From Shouchella clausii (GTDB lineage: Bacteria > Bacillota > Bacilli > Bacillales > Bacillaceae_D), in assembly GCF_002250115.1 (NCBI RefSeq), contig NZ_CP019985.1, forward strand, positions 620,001-684,000: 64,000 bases of DNA. Direction: 5' to 3'. Position 1 is the stretch's first letter, and each line of letters begins with the position of its first letter. Shown in pieces: positions 37,940-49,440 of the stretch. The notes under the pieces are model-generated. The model was not told the DNA's origin, did no database searches, and saw only the letters and a program-made list of their open reading frames with translations. Both the position numbers and the translations under genes were made by a program.

Positions 37940-38785
37940 TTAAACGCCTGAATACGCCATAAATCCTCCATCAACGGGGATCGTAACGCCTGTCACAAAC
38001 CGCGAAGCGTCTTCATCGGCAAGCCACAAAAGTGTTCCAAGCAAATCTTCAGGTTTGCCGAAACGGCGCTGTGGTGTGTGGGCAATGATTTTTTCGGCCC
38101 GCTCCGTTAGCGAACCGTCTGGCTTTGTTAATAAAGCGCGGTTTTGCTCAGTTAGAAAGAAGCCAGGGGCGATGGAATTGGCCCGAATGCCTGAGTCAGC
38201 AAAATGAACGGCGAGCCACTGAGTAAAATTGTTAATGCCCGCTTTTGCAGCGCTATAGGCTGGAACTTTCGTCATCGGTGATGGAGCAGACATGGATGAA
38301 ATATTGATTACCGAACCGCCGCGTCCGAGCATTTGTTTGACAAAGGCTTGTGTCGGAATGACGGTGCCTTGCAAATTTAACCGAAATACGGAATCAAAAC
38401 CATTCGGCGCCAAATCAAAAAACGATTTTGCCGACTCGTTTTCCAAATCGCCTTCCTCATAAGTTTCCTTGTCAGTAATGGCGTCTGGATGGTTTCCACC
38501 AGCACCATTTATAAGCAAATCACAAGGGCCAAACTCTTCCTTGACCGTAGAGGCCGCTTGTTGGACCTGCTCTTCATTAAGCACATCACAAGCTAGCGCT
38601 ATCGCCTTCCCGCCTTGTTCCCTAATTTCCTGGGCAACTGCCTCGCCTTTTTCTTTCGTCCGATTTAGAATCGCGACTTTCATGCCATGTATGGCAAGTT
38701 CTTTTGCCATTGCCCGGCAAAGAATGCCGCTTCCGCCAGTCACAACAGCGACTTTCCCCTTTAATGACTCATGCCCAACTGCCAT
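37940..38785 (-). CDS. SDR-family D-mannonate oxidoreductase (UxuB/YjmF type)
   Basis: A 281-residue short-chain dehydrogenase. [20 protein letters not shown] is the NAD-binding region, [15 protein letters not shown] follows, and the active-site Ser is in INISSMSA with YSAAK. The long insert after NHPDA is typical of fructuronate/mannonate oxidoreductases of the YjmF type, which reduce D-fructuronate to D-mannonate. It is the last gene of the operon, directly after uxuA. Confidence 0.88.
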
Positions 38786-39861
38786 TACGATTGCCTCCTT
38801 TTTGCTTCAAGCTCATATGCATCCCAAAGTCCCCACAAATGCATGATGCCAAGAGCACGGTCGTAGAGGCCATAGCCAGGACGGCATTTTTCATCCCAAA
38901 TATGGCGGCCGTGGTCAGGGCGCGCGTAGCCAGTATAGCCATTTTCGTGGTAGGCCTTAACGACATCGGCAATATGAACAGAACCGTCTTGTGAACGATG
39001 AGATGTCTCGATAAAATCCCCATTATCATAGACTTTGACATTGCGGATATGAGCAAATGGAATTCGGTCGTGGAAACGGCGAATCATCTTCGGAATATCG
39101 TTTTCTGGGTTTGCACCGAGTGAACCGCTGCATAGCGTAATGCCATGGGCTGGGCTGTTTGACAATTGCAAAAAGCGCTCAACGGCGGCCTCACTTGTTA
39201 TGATGCGCGGCAAGCCAAAAACAGACCATGGCGGATCGTCAGGGTGGATCGCCATTTGAATGCCATGTTCCTCGGCAACTGGAAGTACTTGCTCTAAGAA
39301 ATACTGCAAATGCTCCCATAGATCTTCTTCTGTCACATTCTCGTAAGCTTTGAGCAATTTTTCAATATGAGCCAAACGCTCTGGCTCCCAGCCAGGCATG
39401 GTAAAGGCCGCGTTGCTTGTCGTTTGTCGTACCAATTCGTGGGGGTCCATGCTGTCCACTTTTGCTTTTTCATAGAAAAGAGCAGTAGATCCGTCTTCCA
39501 TTTCTTTAAACAAATCTGTGCGTGTCCAATCAAACACAGGCATAAAGTTGTAACAAATCACCTTCGCACCGACCTTGGCGACATTACGAATGCTTTCTTT
39601 ATAATTCTCAATGTATGCATCACGCGTCGGCAAGCCTAGTTTAATATCTTCGTGGACATTAATGCTTTCAACCACGTCTAAATGAAACCCATAACGGTCG
39701 GCCTGTTCCTTTACTTTCATGATGTCTTCCAAAGGCCATACTTCGCCAGCCATTTTATCGTGCAACGCCCAAACAAGCCCTTCTACTCCAGGGATTTGTT
39801 TGATTTGCTCCAGTGTTACGCTGTCGTTGTTTTCTCCGTACCACCTAAATGTCATTCTCAC
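38785..39861 (-). CDS. uxuA: Mannonate dehydratase
   Basis: A 358-residue enzyme that dehydrates D-mannonate to 2-keto-3-deoxygluconate using Fe/Mn. [52 protein letters not shown] and [16 protein letters not shown] are UxuA landmarks. It overlaps the upstream dehydrogenase stop by four bases and the downstream SDR start by one. The kinase and aldolase (KdgK, KdgA) and the isomerase UxaC are not in this window. Confidence 0.95.
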
Positions 39862-40895
39862 TTGCTCTCATCCTCTCTATCAAAGATTAACACTGCTTTA
39901 CGGACATTAGCAGGCTCCTTTTCAAGCAACTCGATTGCCTTTTTCACCTCATCAAAATCAAAACGATGGGATATAATCGAGGCTGGGTCAACCTTTTGTT
40001 CATTCACTTGCCTAATAACGCCGGGAAATTGGTTTGTTTGCAGCCTTGAGCCTGCTACAGTCAATTCTTTTTTCGTTAACAATAAAGACGGAATGCTCGA
40101 CGGCGTTTCATTAAAGCCTAATGTCACTACCGTTCCAGCAACAGAAGCAAGCCTAACTGCTTCAGCAAATGTTGTATTCGTACCAACTGCATCAATGACA
40201 ACATTCGCGAGTTCGCCATCGGTTTTCTCAAACAGGACTGTTTCCGGCTCTTCATGAGGCAAATGAATTGTAAAATCAGCGCCTACCTGTTTGGCATAAT
40301 CGAGCCGGTTGGCTTGTAAATCAGAAATGAAAACCGTTGCGCCTTTTTGCTTCGCCATGATTAAACAAGCGATGCCTGTTGGTCCTGCGCCCATGATAAA
40401 AACAGTATCTCCAGGCTCAATGTTGCCACGATATGCAGCTTGGGCGCCGATTGTCATTGGCTCGACAAGAGCAGCTGCTTCAAAAGGCAAATTCCCTTTT
40501 ACTTTGTGCCAGTTAGCTTCAGGAGCTACCATCCATTCACGCATCCCACCATCACGGTGTACGCCAAACACTTCCAACTTTGCGCAAACATTCGGGCGAC
40601 CTTTTTTGCAAGCGTAGCATACGCCGCATGATGAAATGGGCTCAAGCGCTACACGGTCGCCAGGACGAAGGTCATGGACGCCGCTCCCCACTTCTTCAAC
40701 AATGCCTCCGACTTCATGGCCGATAATGCGCGGGTAGACAGTAAACGGATTACTGCCATGGTAAATGTGCATGTCTGAACCACATATCCCTACAGCTTGC
40801 ACTTTGACAAGTACATCCGTGTCATTTTCAAGCTCTGGCTTTTTTACTTCAACTATGTGAATGTCCCCTGGCTTTCTAACTTCAATTGCTCGCAA
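39858..40895 (-). CDS. Zinc-dependent alcohol dehydrogenase (YjmD/sorbitol-dehydrogenase-like)
   Basis: A 345-residue medium-chain dehydrogenase. The catalytic zinc ligands are in VGICGSDMHIYHG and GHEVGGIVEEVG, the structural zinc site is CGVCYACKKGRPNVC, and the NAD fold is MGAGPTGIACLIMAKQKGA. Homologues beside uxuA/uxuB (YjmD in B. subtilis) probably oxidise a sugar acid or polyol such as L-galactonate or galactitol derivatives. The TTG at 40895 has AAAGGAAGTG upstream and gives the normal MRAIEV start; the long upstream open frame is leader. Confidence 0.85.
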   Translation of the reverse strand: MRAIEVRKPGDIHIVEVKKPELENDTDVLVKVQAVGICGSDMHIYHGSNPFTVYPRIIGHEVGGIVEEVGSGVHDLRPGDRVALEPISSCGVCYACKKGRPNVCAKLEVFGVHRDGGMREWMVAPEANWHKVKGNLPFEAAALVEPMTIGAQAAYRGNIEPGDTVFIMGAGPTGIACLIMAKQKGATVFISDLQANRLDYAKQVGADFTIHLPHEEPETVLFEKTDGELANVVIDAVGTNTTFAEAVRLASVAGTVVTLGFNETPSSIPSLLLTKKELTVAGSRLQTNQFPGVIRQVNEQKVDPASIISHRFDFDEVKKAIELLEKEPANVRKAVLIFDREDESK

Positions 40896-40933
40896 ATGCG
40901 CCACTTCCTTTTCCGTTAGTCTGACGTCTTTTT

Positions 40934-40947
40934 TGAATCCGCTTACA
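40934..40947 (-). promoter_or_regulatory. cre-like site in the leader of the uxu operon
   Basis: On the minus strand TGTAAGCGGATTCA matches the cre consensus at 13 of 14 positions. It lies between the promoter near 41010-41033 and the first start codon. Confidence 0.6.
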
Positions 40948-41014
40948 GGATAGGCTTTGAAAATATCAAGTATGATGATAACAATGGAGCCTGCGCTCAA
41001 AGTTAAATATGATT

Positions 41015-41030
41015 CTACCATACTACCATA
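41015..41030 (-). promoter_or_regulatory. Tandem TATGGTAG repeats overlapping the uxu promoter
   Basis: Two exact 8-bp copies (minus strand TATGGTAG) abut at 41030-41023 and 41022-41015. They fill most of the spacer between a TTGTAT -35 (41033-41028) and an ATATTT/TATTTA -10. This is a probable regulator site, perhaps for a GntR-type hexuronate repressor encoded elsewhere. Confidence 0.5.
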
Positions 41031-41440
41031 CAAGTGTGGCAGTCAAGAAATTTGCTCATTCATGAGGCTAGAAGTCATGCCAAATTGGTTTTTCCGAAAA
41101 CGCATCAAAAGCAATTGACTAAGATCAGATCTGCGCCATTACGCCCTTTCACTGCGATAACCTCCGAAAACAGCCTGCGCGAACAAGCCCACCCATCGTT
41201 GACTTGACTGGGGCAACATTTGTTTATGTCACACAGCTTGTTTATAGGGTCTCGTTCATTCCCTTCGAGACTACCTTTTGTATAGGTTGAAATAGGCGTT
41301 TTCCTTGTCGCACTTATCGGGAGAAGCTTTAATAAGTGGGGAAACGGTAATGGCTATCTCTTTGATTCGCCTTTAGTTTGCGAGAGAAAACAAAGACTAG
41401 GGACTCGCGTCTCCTAGCCTTGTTTTTGTCATAAGAATAA
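41031..41440. other. Gene-free gap with a terminator
   Basis: No gene is supported. CTAGG and CCTAG arms (41397-41415 region) with an inner GAC/GTC pair form a hairpin at about 41390-41428, flanked by CTTGTTTTTG on one strand and TTTGTTTTC on the other, which probably terminates the leftward cluster ending at 41441. The remainder (41031-41380) shows nothing recognisable. Confidence 0.5.
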
Positions 41441-42949
41441 TCATGATTTAGAGGATAACGGTTTTGTTCTGTTGCAGAAGGCAGCTGCTTGTTCGCCAGC
41501 AAGCCGCCCAAACACAGCGCCTGCCATTAAACCAGAACCACCAGGATAGTTATGGTAAAACAGCCCGCCAACCATTTCTCCGGCTGCAAACAAGCCAGCA
41601 ATTGGGCGCTTATCATCGCCGAGAATTTCGCTTTCTGGGCTGACGTGTATGCCGCCAAACGTAAATGTAATGCCGCATGTTACCGGAAATGCATAAAACG
41701 GCGCTTTTTCAAAAGTTAGCGCCCAGTTTGATTTAGGCGGACACACTCCTTTTGTACATTTGCCGTCTTTTATCGCTGGATTGTACGGCCCCGGTTGGAC
41801 TGCCTGGTTATAGGCACGGATCGTATTTACTAACGACTCAGGACAGACGCCCATTTTCTCTGCTAATTCCTCCACGCTTCCTGCTTTGTAACAGGTTGCT
41901 TCTGGCAGGTGGTATTCCTTGCGGAGGTTAGCGCTCACTTGTGAATCGAATAATTGAAATGCTTTTTGCTCAGGCTGCTTCAATGTTTCCTTTCCATATT
42001 TTGCATACGTGTAATTGCGAAAATCGGCTCCTTCATCTACAAACCGTTCTCCTTTTACATTTACAATCAACCCTAGCGGATAAGATGATTTTTTATAAAT
42101 GTCCCCTGGCTTGTTAAAATCGCCTGTTTTTGGGGCATGATAATCGGTCGTATGGGCGTGGCAGCCATCCCATTGTCCATATCGGACGGCCCCAGCTTTT
42201 AGAGCGAGCGTTAACCCTTCGCCTGTGTTAAAGGCTGTGCCACGGACGACTGCTTTTTCCCATTCATTCCCTAGGTGGGTCTTGCGCATGTTGGCATTGG
42301 CTTCAAATCCTCCGCAGGCGAAAATGACGGCATTGGCTGTGATTTCAACAGGTTCTCCCGCTATTTCAACAATTATCTTTTTTGATTGGCCTTCTTGTTT
42401 TAACGCTGTTGTCTTTGCGTTGTACTTGATGTCGATGCCAAGTGCTTCGGCACGTTGAAACAAAGCTTGGACCAGCCCCACTCCTTTGTTTTTTGTCTTC
42501 AACGGAAGCCCTCCCCAAAAATGGCGCTTCCCGTCTTTCTCATAATATTGGTTCTCATTCACTGCAAATTGCACGCCTTGCTTCATCATCCATTGAATCG
42601 TATCAAAAGAGCGTGACACGAGCTGGTTCGCTAACTTTCGATCTGTCTGCCCCTCCGTCAAGCGCAGCAGGTCGGCCATAAACGCTTCTTCTCCATAGTC
42701 AGGCATGCTGATTTGCTCGACTTGCTCCTCATCCAAGTCCGGGAGAACGGCCCGCAAATCTTGAAAGCTACCATACGCACAACGAATTGCTCCGTCGGTA
42801 AAATACGAATTTCCGCCTCTCTTGTTCTTTGGCGCCCGTTCCAACATACATACGCTGGCCCCTTGCTCTTTTGCAGCAATCGCTGCACAAAGGGCGGCAT
42901 TTCCTGCCCCTAACACAACCACGTCGACGTCTGTTTTTCTCATGATCAT
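41441..42949 (-). CDS. FAD-dependent tricarballylate dehydrogenase-like flavoprotein (TcuA type)
   Basis: About 500 residues of the fumarate reductase/succinate dehydrogenase flavoprotein fold. The FAD site is VDVVVLGAGNAALCAAIAAK, then RGGNSYFTDGAIR; ACGGFEANANMR, GCHAHTTDYHAP and the C-terminal HNYPGGSGLMAGAVFGR match TcuA-like enzymes. Salmonella TcuA oxidises tricarballylate to cis-aconitate and needs the Fe-S protein TcuB, which is absent here. The ATG at 42949 overlaps the upstream gene stop (ATGA); ATG 42943 has better ribosome-site spacing and is the alternative. It is cotranscribed with the isopropylmalate-type dehydrogenase. Confidence 0.82.
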   Translation of the reverse strand: MIMRKTDVDVVVLGAGNAALCAAIAAKEQGASVCMLERAPKNKRGGNSYFTDGAIRCAYGSFQDLRAVLPDLDEEQVEQISMPDYGEEAFMADLLRLTEGQTDRKLANQLVSRSFDTIQWMMKQGVQFAVNENQYYEKDGKRHFWGGLPLKTKNKGVGLVQALFQRAEALGIDIKYNAKTTALKQEGQSKKIIVEIAGEPVEITANAVIFACGGFEANANMRKTHLGNEWEKAVVRGTAFNTGEGLTLALKAGAVRYGQWDGCHAHTTDYHAPKTGDFNKPGDIYKKSSYPLGLIVNVKGERFVDEGADFRNYTYAKYGKETLKQPEQKAFQLFDSQVSANLRKEYHLPEATCYKAGSVEELAEKMGVCPESLVNTIRAYNQAVQPGPYNPAIKDGKCTKGVCPPKSNWALTFEKAPFYAFPVTCGITFTFGGIHVSPESEILGDDKRPIAGLFAAGEMVGGLFYHNYPGGSGLMAGAVFGRLAGEQAAAFCNRTKPLSSKS

Positions 42950-44019
42950 TCCGCCTCCTCGATCTTCTCGCAAACAACATCTGTAAATTGCTGCGTGCTT
43001 GCTGTTCCGCCTAGATCCTTGGTACATACTCCACTTGCCAACGTGTCGGCAATCCCTTGGTTGATCCGTCTCTCGACAGTGCTGCATGATTGGCTTTTAT
43101 GTTTTTTGCCAATCCAACCTAATAACATCGCACTGGAACGAATCATTCCAATCGGATTGGCCATACCTAGGCCAGCAATATCGGGGGCTGAGCCGTGTGC
43201 CGCTTGTGCCATTGCTTTGCTTTCACTTGCATTGATCGAGCCGGCGAGCCCTAAGCTTCCAACAAGCTCTCCAGTAAGATCCGATAAAATATCGCCGAAC
43301 ATATTTTCTGCAACAATGACATCAAACTCATCGGCGCGCCTAACCAAATGGGCACACATGGCATCAATGTGATAATCATCAACAGACACATCTGGATAGT
43401 GGTGGCCTACCTCTTTGCAGACGTTTAAAAACAAACCAGATCCTAAGGAAATCACATTCGCCTTATGGACAATTGACACTTTTTTCCGGCGTTCCCTGGC
43501 AGCACAAAACGCGGCATGGGCAATCCGTTCAATCGCTTTGCGCGTAAACACACCGGCTGTTACAGCAATGTCTGCTGTTACCATCCATTCGCCGATTCCT
43601 TTATACATATTGCGGTCAACATAAAACCCTTCTGTATTTTCTCTGTATATGACCAAATCTGCGCGTTCCACCACTCCTTTTATATATGGCTCTGACTTAG
43701 CTGGCCTAATGTTGGCATACAAATCGAAACGGTGCCGCAATTCACCGCTTGGATTGCGTACGTTTTGTAGCTGTTTTGGATACGACTGTGAATCATGGGG
43801 GCCCATCAGCCACCCATCGAGTTTGTCGAGTGCTCGTATCGTCTCCTCTGGCATGCTTAAACCTGTCTGTTTGATTGCGTCCAGCCCCATTGGCAACACA
43901 TGCCAGCCAATAGCCAAACCTGATTTCGCGGCGGCAGCGCTTGCAATTTTCACGGAAGCGCTTACGATTTCATAGCCGATTCCATCTCCATATAATACGC
44001 CTAGCTCTAATTGCCCCAT
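42946..44019 (-). CDS. Isocitrate/isopropylmalate-family decarboxylating dehydrogenase
   Basis: A 357-residue beta-decarboxylating dehydrogenase. GVLYGDGIGYEIV is the start motif, YRENTEGFYVDRNMY the substrate loop, SIVHKANVISLG holds the catalytic Lys, VDDYHIDAMCAHLVRR and AENMFGDILSDLTGEL bind metal, and HGSAPDIAGLGMANP binds NAD. The substrate loop (FYVDRNM) differs from LeuB and from citrate-cycle Icd, so the substrate is a related 2-hydroxy acid such as isocitrate, tartrate or a tricarboxylate. It lies directly upstream of the TcuA-like gene. Confidence 0.85.
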   Translation of the reverse strand: MGQLELGVLYGDGIGYEIVSASVKIASAAAAKSGLAIGWHVLPMGLDAIKQTGLSMPEETIRALDKLDGWLMGPHDSQSYPKQLQNVRNPSGELRHRFDLYANIRPAKSEPYIKGVVERADLVIYRENTEGFYVDRNMYKGIGEWMVTADIAVTAGVFTRKAIERIAHAAFCAARERRKKVSIVHKANVISLGSGLFLNVCKEVGHHYPDVSVDDYHIDAMCAHLVRRADEFDVIVAENMFGDILSDLTGELVGSLGLAGSINASESKAMAQAAHGSAPDIAGLGMANPIGMIRSSAMLLGWIGKKHKSQSCSTVERRINQGIADTLASGVCTKDLGGTASTQQFTDVVCEKIEEAE

Positions 44020-44111
44020 GGCACCCTCCTTAACGTGGAATTACCTTTAGCCTACTAGGAAAATATTATAGAGGGAAATATTGATTTTCTTTGACATTCG
44101 ATAAAAATTTT

Positions 44112-44981
44112 TTATGATTGCTCTTGTTGCCACTGGCAGATGTAATCGATAAAATGCCTAACCACTGCCAGCTTTGCTGCCTCCCTGCTCGCTAATAACC
44201 ATGTCCGACGCAAAAGTGGGGACCTGTCCAAATAGTAGAGTGGCTCTATGTAAAGCTGGTCTTTTTCTGAAAGGGAGATTCCCGGCACAATCGCGTATCC
44301 AAGCCCGTGTTTGACCATTTCCTTGCATGTTTCAAATCGGTCTAAATCCATTTCCGTGTACGGCGGCTCCTCAAATCGGTCGTTCCACCAATGCTGAATC
44401 GTATCTTTAAGCGAACTGTCTGTCCGGTAACTTAAATACGGCTTCTCAGGCAATGTGCCCAGTTCGAGCTTTTCCTTCGAAATGAGCGCCAGCTGTTCTT
44501 CTCCAAGTAGATGCTTTTCTCCTGGCCATGTAAAGTCACTGCGCAAAATACCAACATGGACGGAAGCGCTTTGCAAATGTTCTAATACTTGCGTACTCCA
44601 TCCTGTCCGGACTTGGAAACGAACATTGGGATAGTGGCTTGAAAACCCTTTGAGCACTTTTGGCAGTAAGTATTGGGCATAATTGCTTGATGCGCCAATG
44701 CGAAGCGTTCCGCTTACATGCTTTTGCATGTGCAGCAACTGGTCTTTTGTTTGTTGGATTTTCTCTAGCATTTCATTCGCGCATTCAGCAAGATATTCTC
44801 CTTCTGCCGTAAACCCGATCCCCTTTTTCGTTTTGAAAAACAGCTCCACTTGAAATTCCTGCTCCATTCGCTTTAATCGGTAACTCAAGGATGGCTGTGA
44901 AACAAATAGCTTTTCTGCCGTCTTGGTTAAATTTTTGTATTTATACAGCGCATTAATTAATTCCCAATCTTTTTGGTCCAT
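44112..44981 (-). CDS. LysR-family transcriptional regulator
   Basis: A 289-residue LysR protein. The HTH is NALYKYKNLTKTAEKLFVSQ and LSYRLKRMEQEFQVELFF, and the C-terminal periplasmic-binding fold follows (LRIGASSNYAQYLLPKVLKGF). It sits between the divergent transporter operon and the enzyme genes and probably activates both when the substrate, likely a tricarboxylate, binds. AAATATT-containing imperfect palindromes occur before both units (44057-44081 and 45021-45040). Confidence 0.88.
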   Translation of the reverse strand: MDQKDWELINALYKYKNLTKTAEKLFVSQPSLSYRLKRMEQEFQVELFFKTKKGIGFTAEGEYLAECANEMLEKIQQTKDQLLHMQKHVSGTLRIGASSNYAQYLLPKVLKGFSSHYPNVRFQVRTGWSTQVLEHLQSASVHVGILRSDFTWPGEKHLLGEEQLALISKEKLELGTLPEKPYLSYRTDSSLKDTIQHWWNDRFEEPPYTEMDLDRFETCKEMVKHGLGYAIVPGISLSEKDQLYIEPLYYLDRSPLLRRTWLLASREAAKLAVVRHFIDYICQWQQEQS

Positions 44982-45076
44982 TATGGGCCCCCCTTGCCGT
45001 TTTTGTGTGCCTATTATACATGATTATTAAAAATATTTATCGGATTTTATAGAATTCTACTATTTTACTTATGTTT

Positions 45077-45090
45077 TGCAATCGCTTACA
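45077..45090 (+). promoter_or_regulatory. cre-like site before the tct operon
   Basis: TGCAATCGCTTACA fits the cre consensus at 13 of 14 positions, 35 bp before the first transporter gene. Confidence 0.65.
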
Positions 45091-45124
45091 ATTCGATTCA
45101 AGACATTGCAAACGAGGTGAAAAA

Positions 45125-46249
45125 ATGAGAAAAACGGTTGGGCTCGCAATAGCCTATTCTGTATTATTGTTCGCAGCGGCAGGTTGTAATACGATTCAGG
45201 CAAATGACAAGCAGGCGGACAATGAGGGAAGCGAAGGGGCACTCTATGAAAATGAAGTGATCTCGTTTGTTGTCCCTTACCAGGCCGGCGGTGGTTCAGA
45301 TGTGTTTGCCCGCTTTATGGCCAACTACTTTTCTAAACATATCGAAGGCTCCCCCCGGGTTCAAGTGGAAAATATCCCTGGAGGAGGCAGCATCACAGGG
45401 ACCAATGAATATGCACTTTCGCGGCAAGCGAATGGACGAAATATTTTAACTACAAGTGCTTCCACCCATATTCCGTATATTCTCCAACAGCCATCTGTCA
45501 AGTACGACTTGTCGAAAATGACGCCAATCATTGGCGCTCCTACAGGTGGCGTTGTCTACACTTCTCCCGAAATAGCGGCATTAGGAATGGACGATCTTTC
45601 GAAACAGCAAGGGGAGCTTTTCTATGCCGGCATTTCGCCAACTGGGTTGGACCTTGTGACACTATTGTCGTTTGAAGTCCTTGGCCTTGACGTCAAAGCT
45701 GTGCTTGGCTATGAAGGCAAGGGGCCAGCCCGTGTCGCCTTTGAACAGGGGGAAAGCAACATTGACTACCAAACAACAACGGCCTATAAACGGAATGTCA
45801 TTCCTTTAGTCGAAGAAGGCAGCGCTGTCCCCCTTTACAGCCTTGGACAAATGAGTGAAGACGGTGATTTGGTGAGAGATCCCCAGTTCCCGGAGTTGCC
45901 CACGATTGAAGAAATCCATTATGACCTATACGGAACTGGACCAACAGGAGACGCGTGGGAAGCCTATAAACAATTTGTAGGCGCATCCTTTACGATGCAA
46001 AAAGTCATTTGGATCCATGAAGACGCACCGGAACAGCATCAACAGCTTTTGCACGCATCGATGGAAACACTTATTAAAGACGAACAATTCATGGCTCAGT
46101 CAGAGGAAATTTTGGAAAATTATCAGCCTTTAGTTGGTGAGGAGCTGCAAACAAGAATTGATTCGATGTTGACGATGTCCCCTGAGACATTAGAATGGGT
46201 TTCCCAATTTCTTTTAGATACCTATGATGTGGACATTACTAAACTTTGA
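45125..46249 (+). CDS. Tripartite tricarboxylate transporter substrate-binding lipoprotein (TctC)
   Basis: A 374-residue TctC/BugT-type binding protein. A signal peptide ends in the lipobox AAGC (Cys21). VPYQAGGGSDVFARFMANYF, VENIPGGGSITGTNEY and the large lobe with YAGISPTGLDLVTLL are family features. It captures a carboxylate outside the membrane for the TctAB channel encoded downstream. ATG 45125 follows GAGGTGA. Compared with most TctC proteins the mid-region insert is long. Confidence 0.9.
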   Translation: MRKTVGLAIAYSVLLFAAAGCNTIQANDKQADNEGSEGALYENEVISFVVPYQAGGGSDVFARFMANYFSKHIEGSPRVQVENIPGGGSITGTNEYALSRQANGRNILTTSASTHIPYILQQPSVKYDLSKMTPIIGAPTGGVVYTSPEIAALGMDDLSKQQGELFYAGISPTGLDLVTLLSFEVLGLDVKAVLGYEGKGPARVAFEQGESNIDYQTTTAYKRNVIPLVEEGSAVPLYSLGQMSEDGDLVRDPQFPELPTIEEIHYDLYGTGPTGDAWEAYKQFVGASFTMQKVIWIHEDAPEQHQQLLHASMETLIKDEQFMAQSEEILENYQPLVGEELQTRIDSMLTMSPETLEWVSQFLLDTYDVDITKL

Positions 46250-46326
46250 TTTAACACCCTTTTCCTTGCTCTATTTATTCAACTTTCTTTTGAAACGACA
46301 CCATCCATAAAAAGGAGGCGACTGCT

Positions 46327-47817
46327 ATGCTCGAAGCTGCATGGGAAGCATTGCTTATCGTGTTGCACCCATCTAGAATCGGCTTCATGTTTCTTGGCAT
46401 ATTTATTGGTATTTTTGTAGGACTTCTCCCAGGTTTAAGCGGAACGGTAGGCATGTCCTTGCTGCTGCCCTTTGTGTTTGGCCTCGACCCATTTGTCGGC
46501 ATGGCCTTGCTGATTGGCATGGTTGCTGTTGTCCATACGGGCGATACATTCCCGTCTATCTTGCTTGGCATTCCCGGCACTTCAGGGTCCCAAGCAACGA
46601 TCATGGACGGTTTTCCTTTAGCCAAACAAGGGCAAGCCTCCCGGGCTATGGGAGCCTCATTCTTTTGTTCCATGGTAGGTGGCGTAATTGGCGGCCTTGC
46701 CCTTTATTTAACGATCCCGTTCGCCCGCCCGCTTATCTCTGCTTTTAGTTCGCCAGAGTTATTTATGTTGACGATGCTAGGACTTAGCATGGCTGGGCTG
46801 CTTGCTGGCAAATCGCCGATGAAAGGGATTATTTCAGGACTGCTCGGCTTGCTGATTGGCTCAATCGGCAGCGCCCCAGCTGTCGCAGAATACCGCTACA
46901 CATTTGGATCACTTTATTTATCAAACGGCGTCTCTTTGCCTGTTGTGGCATTAGCGATTTTTGCTTTCCCGATTATGATCACGATGTTGACCAACAAAGG
47001 CGCCGTTTCTAATCATGGACCTTTAAAAAGAGGCGTTTTGACAGGGGTTATGGACGCGCTGCGCAACAAATTCCTTGTATTTCGCAGCGCTGTTATCGGT
47101 ACGTTGATTGGTTTTGTTCCAGGACTTGGAGGCAGTGTTGTTGACTGGATTGCTTATGGCGCTGCCCAAAAAACAGTCAAAGGAAATTCATTTGGAAAAG
47201 GCGACATTCGCGGCGTCATTGCTCCGGAGAGCGCCAACAATGCCAAAGAAGGCGGTTCCCTTGTGCCAACGCTTTTATTTGGCATCCCTGGCTCTGGGAC
47301 GACAGCGATTTTGCTAGGCGGGCTCACCTTAATGGGCTTGGAGGCAGGGCCACGAATGCTTGGCGCCGATTTGCCGGTAACGTTATCGATTGTATGGACG
47401 CTCGTTTTTGCCAATATTTTTGGCGCACTGCTGTGCATGCTGCTTATCCGGCCAATCTCCAAGATTAGCATGGTGCCTGGAGAAAAAATTGTCCCGTTTC
47501 TCGTCGTCCTGCTTGTACTAGGCGCTTACCAATCGAACTTCTCATGGGGCGATCTCATTGTTTTCGTCGCCATTGGCCTCCTAGGCTACGTGATGACGAT
47601 TCTAGATTGGCCGCGCCCGCCGCTCTTAATTGGGTTTGTCCTTGCTTTGAGTGCTGAGCGCTATTATTGGATATCGATTGAGCGGTACGGTTGGTCGTGG
47701 ATGAGCAATCCACTTGTCATTGCCCTTGCTCTATTTATTGTTCTATTGTTGTCAGGCGGGGCGATTATGAAAAAGTTTAGTAAATCCGTTGAGTCAGGAA
47801 AAGGGGTCTCCTCATGA
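46327..47817 (+). CDS. Tripartite tricarboxylate transporter large subunit (TctA)
   Basis: A 496-residue membrane protein with about 11-12 helices. GIFVGLLPGLSGTVGMSLLLPF, GDTFPSILLGIPGTSGSQATIMDGFPLAKQG (read in parts) and FVPGLGGSVVDW are TctA signature loops. It is the sodium- or proton-coupled channel for citrate-like acids. AAGGAGG lies 9 bases before the ATG, and the stop overlaps the TctB start by four bases. Confidence 0.94.
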   Translation: MLEAAWEALLIVLHPSRIGFMFLGIFIGIFVGLLPGLSGTVGMSLLLPFVFGLDPFVGMALLIGMVAVVHTGDTFPSILLGIPGTSGSQATIMDGFPLAKQGQASRAMGASFFCSMVGGVIGGLALYLTIPFARPLISAFSSPELFMLTMLGLSMAGLLAGKSPMKGIISGLLGLLIGSIGSAPAVAEYRYTFGSLYLSNGVSLPVVALAIFAFPIMITMLTNKGAVSNHGPLKRGVLTGVMDALRNKFLVFRSAVIGTLIGFVPGLGGSVVDWIAYGAAQKTVKGNSFGKGDIRGVIAPESANNAKEGGSLVPTLLFGIPGSGTTAILLGGLTLMGLEAGPRMLGADLPVTLSIVWTLVFANIFGALLCMLLIRPISKISMVPGEKIVPFLVVLLVLGAYQSNFSWGDLIVFVAIGLLGYVMTILDWPRPPLLIGFVLALSAERYYWISIERYGWSWMSNPLVIALALFIVLLLSGGAIMKKFSKSVESGKGVSS

Positions 47818-48254
47818 CAAAAGACTTACTTAATATTGGTTTTACTAGTTTTTTGATGCTTGTTTTTGGATTCGCTGTTTTTGGCGCTTTGCAATTTTCA
47901 CGGTTGGCACAGTTTTTTCCACTGTATGTTTCGATTGCTGGAACCGTTTGTACAGCGATTTACTTAGTTGTTTTAATTATCCGTTATCGAAAAGAAAACG
48001 CATCAAGTTCAAGAGTGGTCGTTTCTATCGCCCGGCCACTACGCTATATGGCGTGGCTTCTTGGCTACATTGCCTTCATTTATCTTGTAGGCATGTTGAT
48101 TGCCACTTCTCTGTTTCTCGTCGCTTTCTTGATGTTTGAATCGAAAATGCCATTTATCAAGACTGCCCTTTCTGTCGCCATCGTACTGATCGGAATTTCA
48201 GCCGCTAGCTCCCTGCTCGGTGTTTACTGGCCGACAAACTTGCTTGGGCTGTAA
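47814..48254 (+). CDS. Tripartite tricarboxylate transporter small subunit (TctB)
   Basis: A 146-residue protein with four hydrophobic helices (TSFLMLVFGFAVFGALQF first, LGYIAFIYLVGMLIATSLFL in the third). TctB is poorly conserved, so the call leans on position between TctA and the isomerase gene and on size and topology. It overlaps TctA by four bases. Confidence 0.85.
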   Translation: MTKDLLNIGFTSFLMLVFGFAVFGALQFSRLAQFFPLYVSIAGTVCTAIYLVVLIIRYRKENASSSRVVVSIARPLRYMAWLLGYIAFIYLVGMLIATSLFLVAFLMFESKMPFIKTALSVAIVLIGISAASSLLGVYWPTNLLGL

Positions 48255-48282
48255 AAAAGAACAATAACCACTAGGAGTGAAA

Positions 48283-49440
48283 ATGATGAGAGAATATGAA
48301 CGCATACGCGCTGCCATTATTCGCGGCGGCACAAGCAAAGGTGTCTTTATTTTGCAAAACGAGCTGCCAGAAGACCCTAAAGTCCGCGACCAAGTCATCC
48401 TATCCATATACGGCCAGGACGCACGGCAAATCGATGGCCTTGGCGGAGCAGACGCCTTAACAAGCAAGTTTGCGATGGTCCGTCCGTCTCCTTTGTCAGC
48501 AGCTGACATTGAGTATACATTTGGCCAAGTGGGGATTGGCACTGGTCATATCGATTACAATACCAATTGCGGGAACATCCTTAGCGGCGTTGGCCCGTTT
48601 GCCGTCGACGAAGGGCTTGTTTGCGTGACAGAACCCTATACAAAAGTTCGTATCCATAACACCAATACAGATCGGATCATCATCGCCCATGTGCCCGTAG
48701 AAAACGGCCGCGCCAAGCAAGTGGGGAACTTTCATATTGACGGCGTCCCCGGCGGCGGCGCTAAAATTATGCTTGATTTTCAAAACGCTGCTGGAGCAAA
48801 AACAGGTGCCCTGTTTCCAACAGGCGCACGAAAGGATTGGCTTGATTGTTCATATGGCAAAATTGCAACGAGCATTGTCGATGTTACTACGCCAGTCGCT
48901 TTTATAAACGCTTCTGATGTAGGAATGACAGGAGTAGAACTTCCTGAGCAGCTGACTCAAGAGCAACTGTTTCTGCTTGAGGAAATACGGGGCGCAGCGG
49001 CAACGAAATTAGGTTTTGTTGCCCAACCGTCAGACGCTGCCCGTTTGACCCCTGCAAGCCCGAAATTGATCATCGTTTCAGAAGCAGAAGAATACGAAAC
49101 AGCTGCCAGGCAAACTGTTCATAAGGCAAATATTGATTTCGTCGGCCGGGCGATGTCGATGCAACAGATGCATAAAACATTTCCTGTCACAGGCGGGCTG
49201 TGCACTGCTGTTGCTTCTAAACTACAGGGCACTGTCGTCCACGAATGCTGTTCTGATCATGCTCAAAATGAGGAAACTGTCCGTGTCGGACACCCTTCTG
49301 GCACAATGGAGTTTCATGTGTCCGTCAAAGAAGCAAAAGACATCGAACCAACGATTGAAAAAGCAGCTGTCGCCAGGACGGCACGGCGTATAATGGAAGG
49401 ATTTGCGTACGCACCCGCTGCTTTGTTTTGGGGGCACTGA
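48283..49440 (+). CDS. PrpF-like isomerase (aconitate isomerase/methylaconitate family)
   Basis: A 385-residue PrpF protein of the diaminopimelate-epimerase fold. IRAAIIRGGTSKGVFILQNELP, DGLGGADALTSKFAMV, DYNTNCGNILSGVGPFAV and GVPGGGAKIMLDF are landmarks; Cys in NCGN is the expected catalytic residue. PrpF-like enzymes isomerise double bonds or cis/trans forms of tricarboxylates (2-methylaconitate, aconitate, oxalomesaconate). It ends the tct operon. AGGAG at 48273 fits ATG 48283 or 48286. Confidence 0.9.
   Translation: MMREYERIRAAIIRGGTSKGVFILQNELPEDPKVRDQVILSIYGQDARQIDGLGGADALTSKFAMVRPSPLSAADIEYTFGQVGIGTGHIDYNTNCGNILSGVGPFAVDEGLVCVTEPYTKVRIHNTNTDRIIIAHVPVENGRAKQVGNFHIDGVPGGGAKIMLDFQNAAGAKTGALFPTGARKDWLDCSYGKIATSIVDVTTPVAFINASDVGMTGVELPEQLTQEQLFLLEEIRGAAATKLGFVAQPSDAARLTPASPKLIIVSEAEEYETAARQTVHKANIDFVGRAMSMQQMHKTFPVTGGLCTAVASKLQGTVVHECCSDHAQNEETVRVGHPSGTMEFHVSVKEAKDIEPTIEKAAVARTARRIMEGFAYAPAALFWGH

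What the first reader, a model, noticed from the sequence alone, without database searches (positions are those of the whole stretch)
41441..49440. Tricarboxylate-type catabolic cluster with an unusual enzyme set
One locus combines a TctCAB importer, a TcuA-like FAD dehydrogenase, an isocitrate/isopropylmalate-family dehydrogenase with a non-standard substrate loop (FYVDRNM), a PrpF-like isomerase, a LysR regulator and a cre site. A coherent hypothesis: import of tricarballylate or trans-aconitate, oxidation to aconitate (TcuA-like), isomerisation (PrpF-like), hydration by an unlinked aconitase and oxidative decarboxylation to 2-oxoglutarate. TcuB, the partner of Salmonella TcuA, is missing, and TcuC is replaced by a tripartite transporter. 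Another substrate, such as a methylated or hydroxylated tricarboxylate, is equally possible.
Basis: partly seen in the sequence, partly recalled or inferred. Interest (0 to 1): 0.75.

Follow-up and report, generated by a model that had tools for sequence, protein, structure and literature searches.

The report
Bacterial aconitate-type acid uptake operon
A soil-type Bacillus relative carries a two-way gene cluster that probably imports an aconitate-like acid and feeds it into central metabolism; its core resembles a known trans-aconitate system, while two of its enzymes belong to families whose substrates are not established.

Summary
The genes are all there, in a Shouchella clausii-like genome. 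The same seven-gene divergent layout recurs in six relatives, with a cre site and LysR-type dyad between the two units. A core of TctC, TctA, TctB, LysR and PrpF occurs alone in four other genomes, so it works like the published tar trans-aconitate system with another importer (PMC11495376). The regulator is closest to CcpC and keeps its two citrate-contacting arginines. The DRN loop is real but family-wide (Arg in 96 of 96); the window's dehydrogenase passes no curated NCBIfam cut-off, and linkage to TcuA-type genes changed at least four times on its tree. Best reading: trans-aconitate-type assimilation, with a divergent FAD dehydrogenase and an NAD-type isocitrate-like dehydrogenase added; hydratase unlinked. 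Substrate and electron acceptor unproven. New variant of a known kind.

The parts
41441..42949 (-). TcuA-like FAD dehydrogenase, 502 aa (the long type, without TcuB)
42946..44019 (-). DRN-loop isocitrate/isopropylmalate-family dehydrogenase, 357 aa, predicted NAD-dependent
44112..44981 (-). CcpC-like LysR-type regulator, 289 aa
45049..45063 (.). LysR-type dyad ATAG-N7-CTAT, seen with small changes in relatives
45077..45090 (.). cre site (TGCAATCGCTTACA on +, TGTAAGCGATTGCA on -)
45125..46249 (+). TctC-like solute-binding lipoprotein (no Pfam match)
46327..47817 (+). TctA large permease subunit
47814..48254 (+). TctB small permease subunit
   Evidence: 28.0 bits against a cut-off of 29.1
48277..49440 (+). 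PrpF-family isomerase; nearest solved structure 3-methylitaconate isomerase 3g7k

Best explanation
An inducible uptake-and-assimilation cluster for an aconitate-type tricarboxylate, most likely trans-aconitate and perhaps its saturated analogue. Core (inferred from family, context and the tar precedent): TctC binds the acid outside, TctAB imports it, PrpF moves the double bond (trans- to cis-aconitate), the CcpC-like LysR senses the acid and controls the divergent units, and CcpA acting at the cre site holds them down on good sugars. Add-on unit (inferred): the FAD enzyme makes the double bond in a saturated analogue, an aconitase (here the unlinked AcnA) hydrates the product, and the DRN-loop enzyme oxidatively decarboxylates the resulting isocitrate-like acid with NAD+ to a 2-oxoacid (2-oxoglutarate if the acid is isocitrate). 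Shown here: gene content, conserved layout and regulatory sites, family placement. Not shown: substrate, reactions, electron acceptor of the FAD enzyme, direction of regulation.
For: Seven-gene divergent layout in six other genomes: L002, L003 (several frames broken), L004, L012, L118, L119. Four genomes hold TctCAB + LysR with a divergent PrpF and neither redox enzyme nearby (L188-L191; in L191 = G301 the TctC frame has a stop; LysR stands on the tctCAB strand there, unlike here). Before PrpF they have ATAA-N7-TTAT and one or two TTATAA (no chance control run); TTATAA is the motif shown for TarR (PMC11495376, sections 23, 26, 27 and 31 read). In 397 genomes of the order, window-type TctC is in 17 and PrpF lies within 12 kb in 14 of these; long TcuA (29) and the dehydrogenase (23, E up to 1e-85) are both in 9 against 1.68 expected, Fisher 6.8e-6, kinship not corrected. 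LysR: best solved relative CcpC 5z72, 201.7 bits; R147, R258 and S129 align with the citrate contacts Arg147, Arg260 and Ser129 (passages of PMC8514465) and are kept in 50, 44 and 47 of 50 similar regulators, duplicates included. PrpF keeps the Lys of 'tsK' and the Cys of 'NCGN' seen in 3g7k and 2pvz. Hydratase-type genes do sit in related clusters: AcnA in Shinella L163 with TctC, TctA, PrpF, dehydrogenase, TcuA and TcuB, isopropylmalate-dehydratase subunits directly after a long TcuA, with PrpF, in Hydrogenophaga L170. 'HGSAPDIAG' in place of Icd's 'HGTAPKYAG' fits NAD+ (rule recalled).
Against: No substrate or activity data. If cis-aconitate and isocitrate were the intermediates, the housekeeping Icd would suffice, so a dedicated dehydrogenase hints at another acid; plain trans-aconitate needs neither redox enzyme. 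The long TcuA lies outside the TcuB-paired branch. The dehydrogenase is not bound to this pathway: tetronate-type kinases are near 14 of 96 members, and none of the five scored gene types (TcuA, PrpF, OtnK-type kinase, aconitase, tripartite transporter) near 47 of 96, some loci being short. Window-type TctC also occurs away from this core: G045, G254 and G212 have no PrpF hit and carry two-component regulators instead, and in G308 PrpF is 8.9 kb off. PrpF scores higher against 3-methylitaconate isomerase than against PrpF (348.7 and 221.6 bits). The LysR residues are kept in almost all similar regulators, whatever their neighbours, and the partner positions of CcpC Ile100 and Ser191 vary. Tripartite transporters carry other things too (PMC13390454, search listing only).
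Confidence: 0.5

Rival explanations
1. Tricarballylate catabolism as in Salmonella: the FAD enzyme is a functional TcuA that makes cis-aconitate, with ETF or another carrier in place of TcuB.
For: NCBIfam NF006130 TcuA 604.5 bits over its 369 cut-off. True TcuA-TcuB pairs sit with related TctC, TctA, TctB and PrpF in L150 and with related TctC, TctA and PrpF in L160-L163. ETF genes were seen next to two of the 45 long TcuA genes: L171 annotated, L141 by similarity. The genome has one ETF gene pair.
Against: TIGR02485 TcuA 288.2 bits, under its 372.55 cut-off, while two TcuB-paired proteins pass with 515.9 and 546.0 and two further long ones fail with 276.2 and 262.9. Separate branch and different signature, GADFRNYTYAKYG against GEDxWPKRYAIWG. 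Schinkia azotoformans (L015) carries both types in neighbouring units, so they are probably not redundant. No TcuB hit in the genome.
Confidence: 0.2
2. A different acid: a methylated, hydroxylated or alkylated tricarboxylate or substituted succinate, handled by desaturation, isomerisation, hydration and oxidative decarboxylation of a 3-substituted malate.
For: PrpF nearest to 3-methylitaconate isomerase; a dedicated dehydrogenase with its own conserved loop; related clusters add 2-hydroxyacid dehydrogenase, Ldh_2, RraA, MmgE/PrpD, PEP-mutase-type and amidohydrolase genes.
Against: These extra genes are absent from the window's cluster; a CcpC-like regulator and a tar-like core point to plain aconitate-type acids.
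Confidence: 0.2
3. Two neighbouring but separate functions: TctCAB-PrpF for trans-aconitate, and the dehydrogenase pair for another acid that shares only the regulator.
For: The core occurs without the pair in four genomes; the dehydrogenase occurs elsewhere without the core.
Against: Joint divergent layout in the window and six relatives, and the same gene types together in other lineages.
Confidence: 0.1

Closest known systems
tar trans-aconitate system (tarR-tarA-tarB) of Bacillus velezensis FZB42 (PMC11495376)
   Same: PrpF-superfamily isomerase, divergent LysR regulator, importer, AT-rich dyad-type operators
   Different: importer is the MFS protein TarB there and TctCAB here; no FAD enzyme or dehydrogenase described in tar; TTATAA absent from this promoter; TarR does not bind citrate, the ligand of this LysR is unknown
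Salmonella tcuABC tricarballylate operon (PMC10468695, passages seen)
   Same: FAD enzyme of the same superfamily beside a tricarboxylate-type transporter
   Different: no TcuB, other TcuA branch and signature, other transporter, added PrpF and dehydrogenase
CcpC of Bacillus (PMC8514465, passages seen; 5z72)
   Same: regulator similarity, two citrate-contacting Arg and one Ser, dyad like ATAA-N7-TTAT
   Different: 268.2 bits against the 400 cut-off of NF058504; sits in a catabolic cluster instead of acting on citB
NAD-dependent isocitrate/homoisocitrate dehydrogenases (6lky, 6m3s, 1x0l) and tartrate dehydrogenase 3flk
   Same: fold (Foldseek TM to query 0.85-0.90, 32-39% identity) and most catalytic positions
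   Different: DRN loop, AQAxHGSAPDIAG and NPSG signatures; the window's protein is below every NCBIfam cut-off

Membership tests
TcuA tricarballylate dehydrogenase (Salmonella type) | score over the TIGR02485 cut-off | tested here: not met
   288.2 against 372.55; NF006130 is met, 604.5 against 369
TcuA tricarballylate dehydrogenase (Salmonella type) | TcuB partner gene directly downstream or in the genome | tested here: not met
   0 of 45 long TcuA loci have TcuB directly downstream (in L143 and L144 a TcuB belongs to the neighbouring short TcuA); no TIGR02484 hit in the genome
TcuA tricarballylate dehydrogenase (Salmonella type) | inside the TcuB-paired branch | tested here: not met
   9 TcuB-paired rows on one side of a branch, SH-aLRT 100; 45 long rows apart, 96; quick tree, Salmonella TcuA itself not in it
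tar trans-aconitate assimilation system | PrpF-family isomerase, LysR regulator and importer in one divergent unit | tested here: met
   importer family and gene order differ; TarA itself was not compared
tar trans-aconitate assimilation system | aconitate isomerase activity and trans-aconitate-induced expression | not testable with these tools
   needs bench work
Tripartite tricarboxylate transporter | TctA, TctB and TctC over Pfam cut-offs | tested here: inconclusive
   TctA 396.6 bits met; TctB 28.0 under 29.1; TctC no Pfam match
Isocitrate / isopropylmalate / tartrate / homoisocitrate dehydrogenase equivalogs | score over a curated NCBIfam cut-off | tested here: not met
   18 models matched, none over its cut-off; best TIGR02088 294.6 against 409.8
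Isocitrate/isopropylmalate dehydrogenase superfamily | Iso_dh domain and fold | tested here: met
   285 bits; model pLDDT 90.4, TM to query up to 0.90
CcpC | score over the NF058504 cut-off | tested here: not met
   268.2 against 400; best of 16 hits in the genome

The most novel reading that the evidence does not exclude
The DRN-loop dehydrogenases are a separate enzyme family that oxidatively decarboxylates an acid other than ordinary isocitrate (for example another isocitrate isomer or a substituted one), and the long TcuA-like proteins are a separate family of desaturases that pass electrons to something other than TcuB, possibly ETF; together with PrpF they form an undescribed route that several bacterial lineages have assembled independently.
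Probability: 0.3. Interest if true: 0.65.

Novelty: new variant of a known kind. Interest (0 to 1): 0.45.

Why it matters
The long TcuA is labelled tricarballylate dehydrogenase in public plasmid records although no TcuB follows it. The cluster gives a compact setting in which both substrates could be settled, would add a transporter type to trans-aconitate use (the tar authors call for more transporters to be identified, PMC11495376), and warns that the tcuA label is too broad.

Tried and rejected

Literature: none of the titles and abstract starts listed describes this gene set (open-licence PMC only; listed 5 of 5, 19 of 19, 1 of 2, 20 of 23, 15 of 155, 12 of 70, 10 of 81, 8 of 8). This does not prove absence from print. 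PMC13188880 was seen in passages only.

Rows dropped: the TcuA set took rows over 200 bits and 420 residues, and 4 duplicate rows were left out; L163 was set to TcuB-paired from its annotation because the script had missed it. In the dehydrogenase set 7 loci that repeat others or hold a partial gene were left out, and L164, L176 and L177 fell out for want of a clear start motif or length. The loci were fetched by TcuA or dehydrogenase similarity, so counts over loci are not a random sample; only searches use the even sample of 397 genomes.
Full report
Where it is. The window is positions 620001-684000 of a 4.52 Mb single-contig genome. The nearest named relative among the fetched loci is Shouchella rhizosphaerae (dehydrogenase 96% identical), so it is Shouchella clausii-like.

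What is there. Minus strand: LysR 44112-44981, dehydrogenase 42946-44019, FAD enzyme 41441-42949. Plus strand: TctC-like 45125-46249, TctA 46327-47817, TctB 47814-48254, PrpF 48277-49440. The FAD enzyme's likely ATG overlaps the dehydrogenase stop. Between LysR and TctC lie a dyad ATAG-N7-CTAT (45049-45063) and a cre site (45077-45090). In the same intergenic stretch of seven relatives (L002, L003, L004, L012, L118, L119, L120) a strict cre pattern is found in 5; L012 and L120 have close variants. By eye the dyad appears in all seven with small changes, as ATAA-N7-TTAT in L012.

Conservation. The same seven genes in the same divergent layout are in L002, L003 (frames broken in several genes), L004, L012 (Oceanobacillus), L118 and L119; L120 has all but the dehydrogenase. 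In an even sample of 397 genomes of the order the FAD enzyme family is in 32 genomes at E 1e-60 (29 with the long type), the dehydrogenase in 23 at E 1e-85, PrpF in 57. Long FAD enzyme and dehydrogenase are both in 9 (1.68 expected, Fisher 6.8e-6), in one of them (G305) on different contigs and in another (G203) split over contigs; FAD enzyme and PrpF in 20 (4.16 expected); dehydrogenase and PrpF in 18 (3.30 expected) (kinship not corrected). The TctC type of the window is in 17 genomes; of these 14 have PrpF within 12 kb (13 within 5 kb), 9 an FAD enzyme of the family (one of them, G001, of the short TcuB-paired type), 6 the dehydrogenase. Four of the 17 (L188-L191) have TctC, TctA, TctB, LysR and a divergent PrpF and neither redox enzyme nearby; in L191 the TctC frame has a stop. 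Three (G045, G254, G212) have no PrpF hit and carry two-component regulators, so this TctC type also serves other clusters.

The core. A PrpF-superfamily isomerase, a divergent LysR and an importer is the make-up of the tar system of Bacillus velezensis, where TarA isomerises trans-aconitate, TarB (MFS) imports it and TarR binds it and TTATAA sites (PMC11495376: abstract, passages, sections 23, 26, 27 and 31). The four minimal cassettes carry TTATAA (1 or 2 copies) and ATAA-N7-TTAT between LysR and PrpF (no chance control). The window's promoter has the dyad but no TTATAA. Gene order differs: there LysR lies on the tctCAB strand, here on the dehydrogenase strand. The regulator is nearest to CcpC among solved structures (201.7 bits), under the CcpC cut-off. 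R147, R258 and S129 line up with CcpC's citrate contacts Arg147, Arg260 and Ser129; Ser189 and Ser191 are T187 and S189, the latter Ser in only 13 of 50 similar regulators, and Ile100 is not kept. This fits a tricarboxylate ligand but does not say which.

PrpF. No NCBIfam equivalog is reached (4-oxalomesaconate tautomerase 320.2 against 440, PrpF 272.8 against 440.55). Nearest solved structure: 3-methylitaconate isomerase (348.7 bits), then PrpF-type entries (about 220 to 225) and YbhH (213.4). The Lys and Cys that I recall as catalytic are kept; 5k87 differs from 2pvz at that Lys. TarA itself could not be compared.

The FAD enzyme. On a tree of 57 rows the 9 TcuB-paired proteins form one side of a branch (SH-aLRT 100) and 45 proteins of the window's long type another (96); 3 further paralogues stand apart (quick method). 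Signatures differ sharply. None of the 45 has TcuB directly downstream; 13 of 45 have the dehydrogenase nearby (L143 counted from a fragment at a contig end), 20 of 45 PrpF and 14 of 45 the window-type TctC. Schinkia azotoformans carries both kinds in neighbouring units (L015). ETF genes were seen adjacent in two loci (L171 annotated; L141 by similarity); one ETF pair is in this genome. ETF as electron acceptor is therefore only a suggestion. The label TcuA is a family label here, not a shown function.

The dehydrogenase. It matches 18 NCBIfam models, none over its cut-off. In 96 aligned members, window included, the loop reads about EGxYxDRNxxxGxGE with D in 95, R in 96 and the closing GE in 96; LeuB, Icd, the fourth Iso_dh gene of this genome and homoisocitrate dehydrogenase lack it. 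So the loop defines a subfamily. The Tyr of the loop is kept in 90 of 96 (5 Leu, 1 Met). An AlphaFold model (pLDDT 90.4) matches isocitrate, homoisocitrate, isopropylmalate and tartrate dehydrogenases about equally, so fold does not settle the substrate; the loop is the least certain part. On a tree of the 96 and three outgroups the 15 that neighbour a TcuA-family gene need at least 4 changes of that label, gains or losses, and the window's own group is a set of 7 (98). Alphaproteobacterial plasmids (L160-L163) place it with TctC, TctA, PrpF and TcuA-TcuB; L164 has it beside a long TcuA with TctC, TctA and PrpF. Aconitase-family genes are near in 10 of 96, tetronate-type kinases in 14 of 96, and 47 of 96 have none of the five scored gene types nearby, so other roles exist.

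How it most likely works. Import, isomerisation by PrpF, hydration by an aconitase (the genome has two aconitase-family hits, read as LeuC and AcnA; Shinella has acnA inside such a cluster, and Hydrogenophaga has isopropylmalate-dehydratase subunits directly after a long TcuA, with PrpF), NAD-dependent oxidative decarboxylation, with the FAD enzyme admitting a saturated analogue. The first two steps rest on the tar precedent, the later ones on family chemistry. The weak point is that a dedicated dehydrogenase is unnecessary if ordinary isocitrate is formed, which is why a different acid stays a serious rival. A related lead, recalled only: phosphonate pathways of the FR-900098 type use a PEP mutase, an aconitase-like and an isocitrate-dehydrogenase-like enzyme on a phosphonomethyl-malate; the Bradyrhizobium locus L165 looks like one and is the single member without the loop Asp.

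Verdict. New variant of a known kind.

Noticed in passing
37940-41033: Neighbouring hexuronate-type genes: UxuA mannonate dehydratase, mannonate oxidoreductase, Zn-dependent dehydrogenase; probably a separate unit.
   Followed up: no
   Followed up: partly
L165 (Bradyrhizobium japonicum plasmid p1S06B): A member of the DRN family, with Ala in place of the loop Asp, beside an aconitase-type large subunit, a PEP-mutase-type protein and a nucleotidyltransferase: looks like a phosphonate biosynthesis cluster.
   Followed up: no
L167, L175, L177: The dehydrogenase near aconitase-family genes, with lactonases, citrate symporters, tetronate-type kinases or an Asp/Glu racemase in various mixes, in Priestia, Ilyobacter and Pantoea: a second uncharacterised context (the loop of L177 was not checked).
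   Followed up: partly
L152, L153, L154 (G054, G221): Large clusters with three PrpF genes each, near MmgE/PrpD, PEP-mutase-type, AtuA and amidohydrolase genes, around TctCAB, a TcuA-family gene and the dehydrogenase.
   Followed up: partly
L158:4335-5390 (genome about 444335-445390): A fourth Iso_dh gene in this genome, outside the DRN family.
   Followed up: partly
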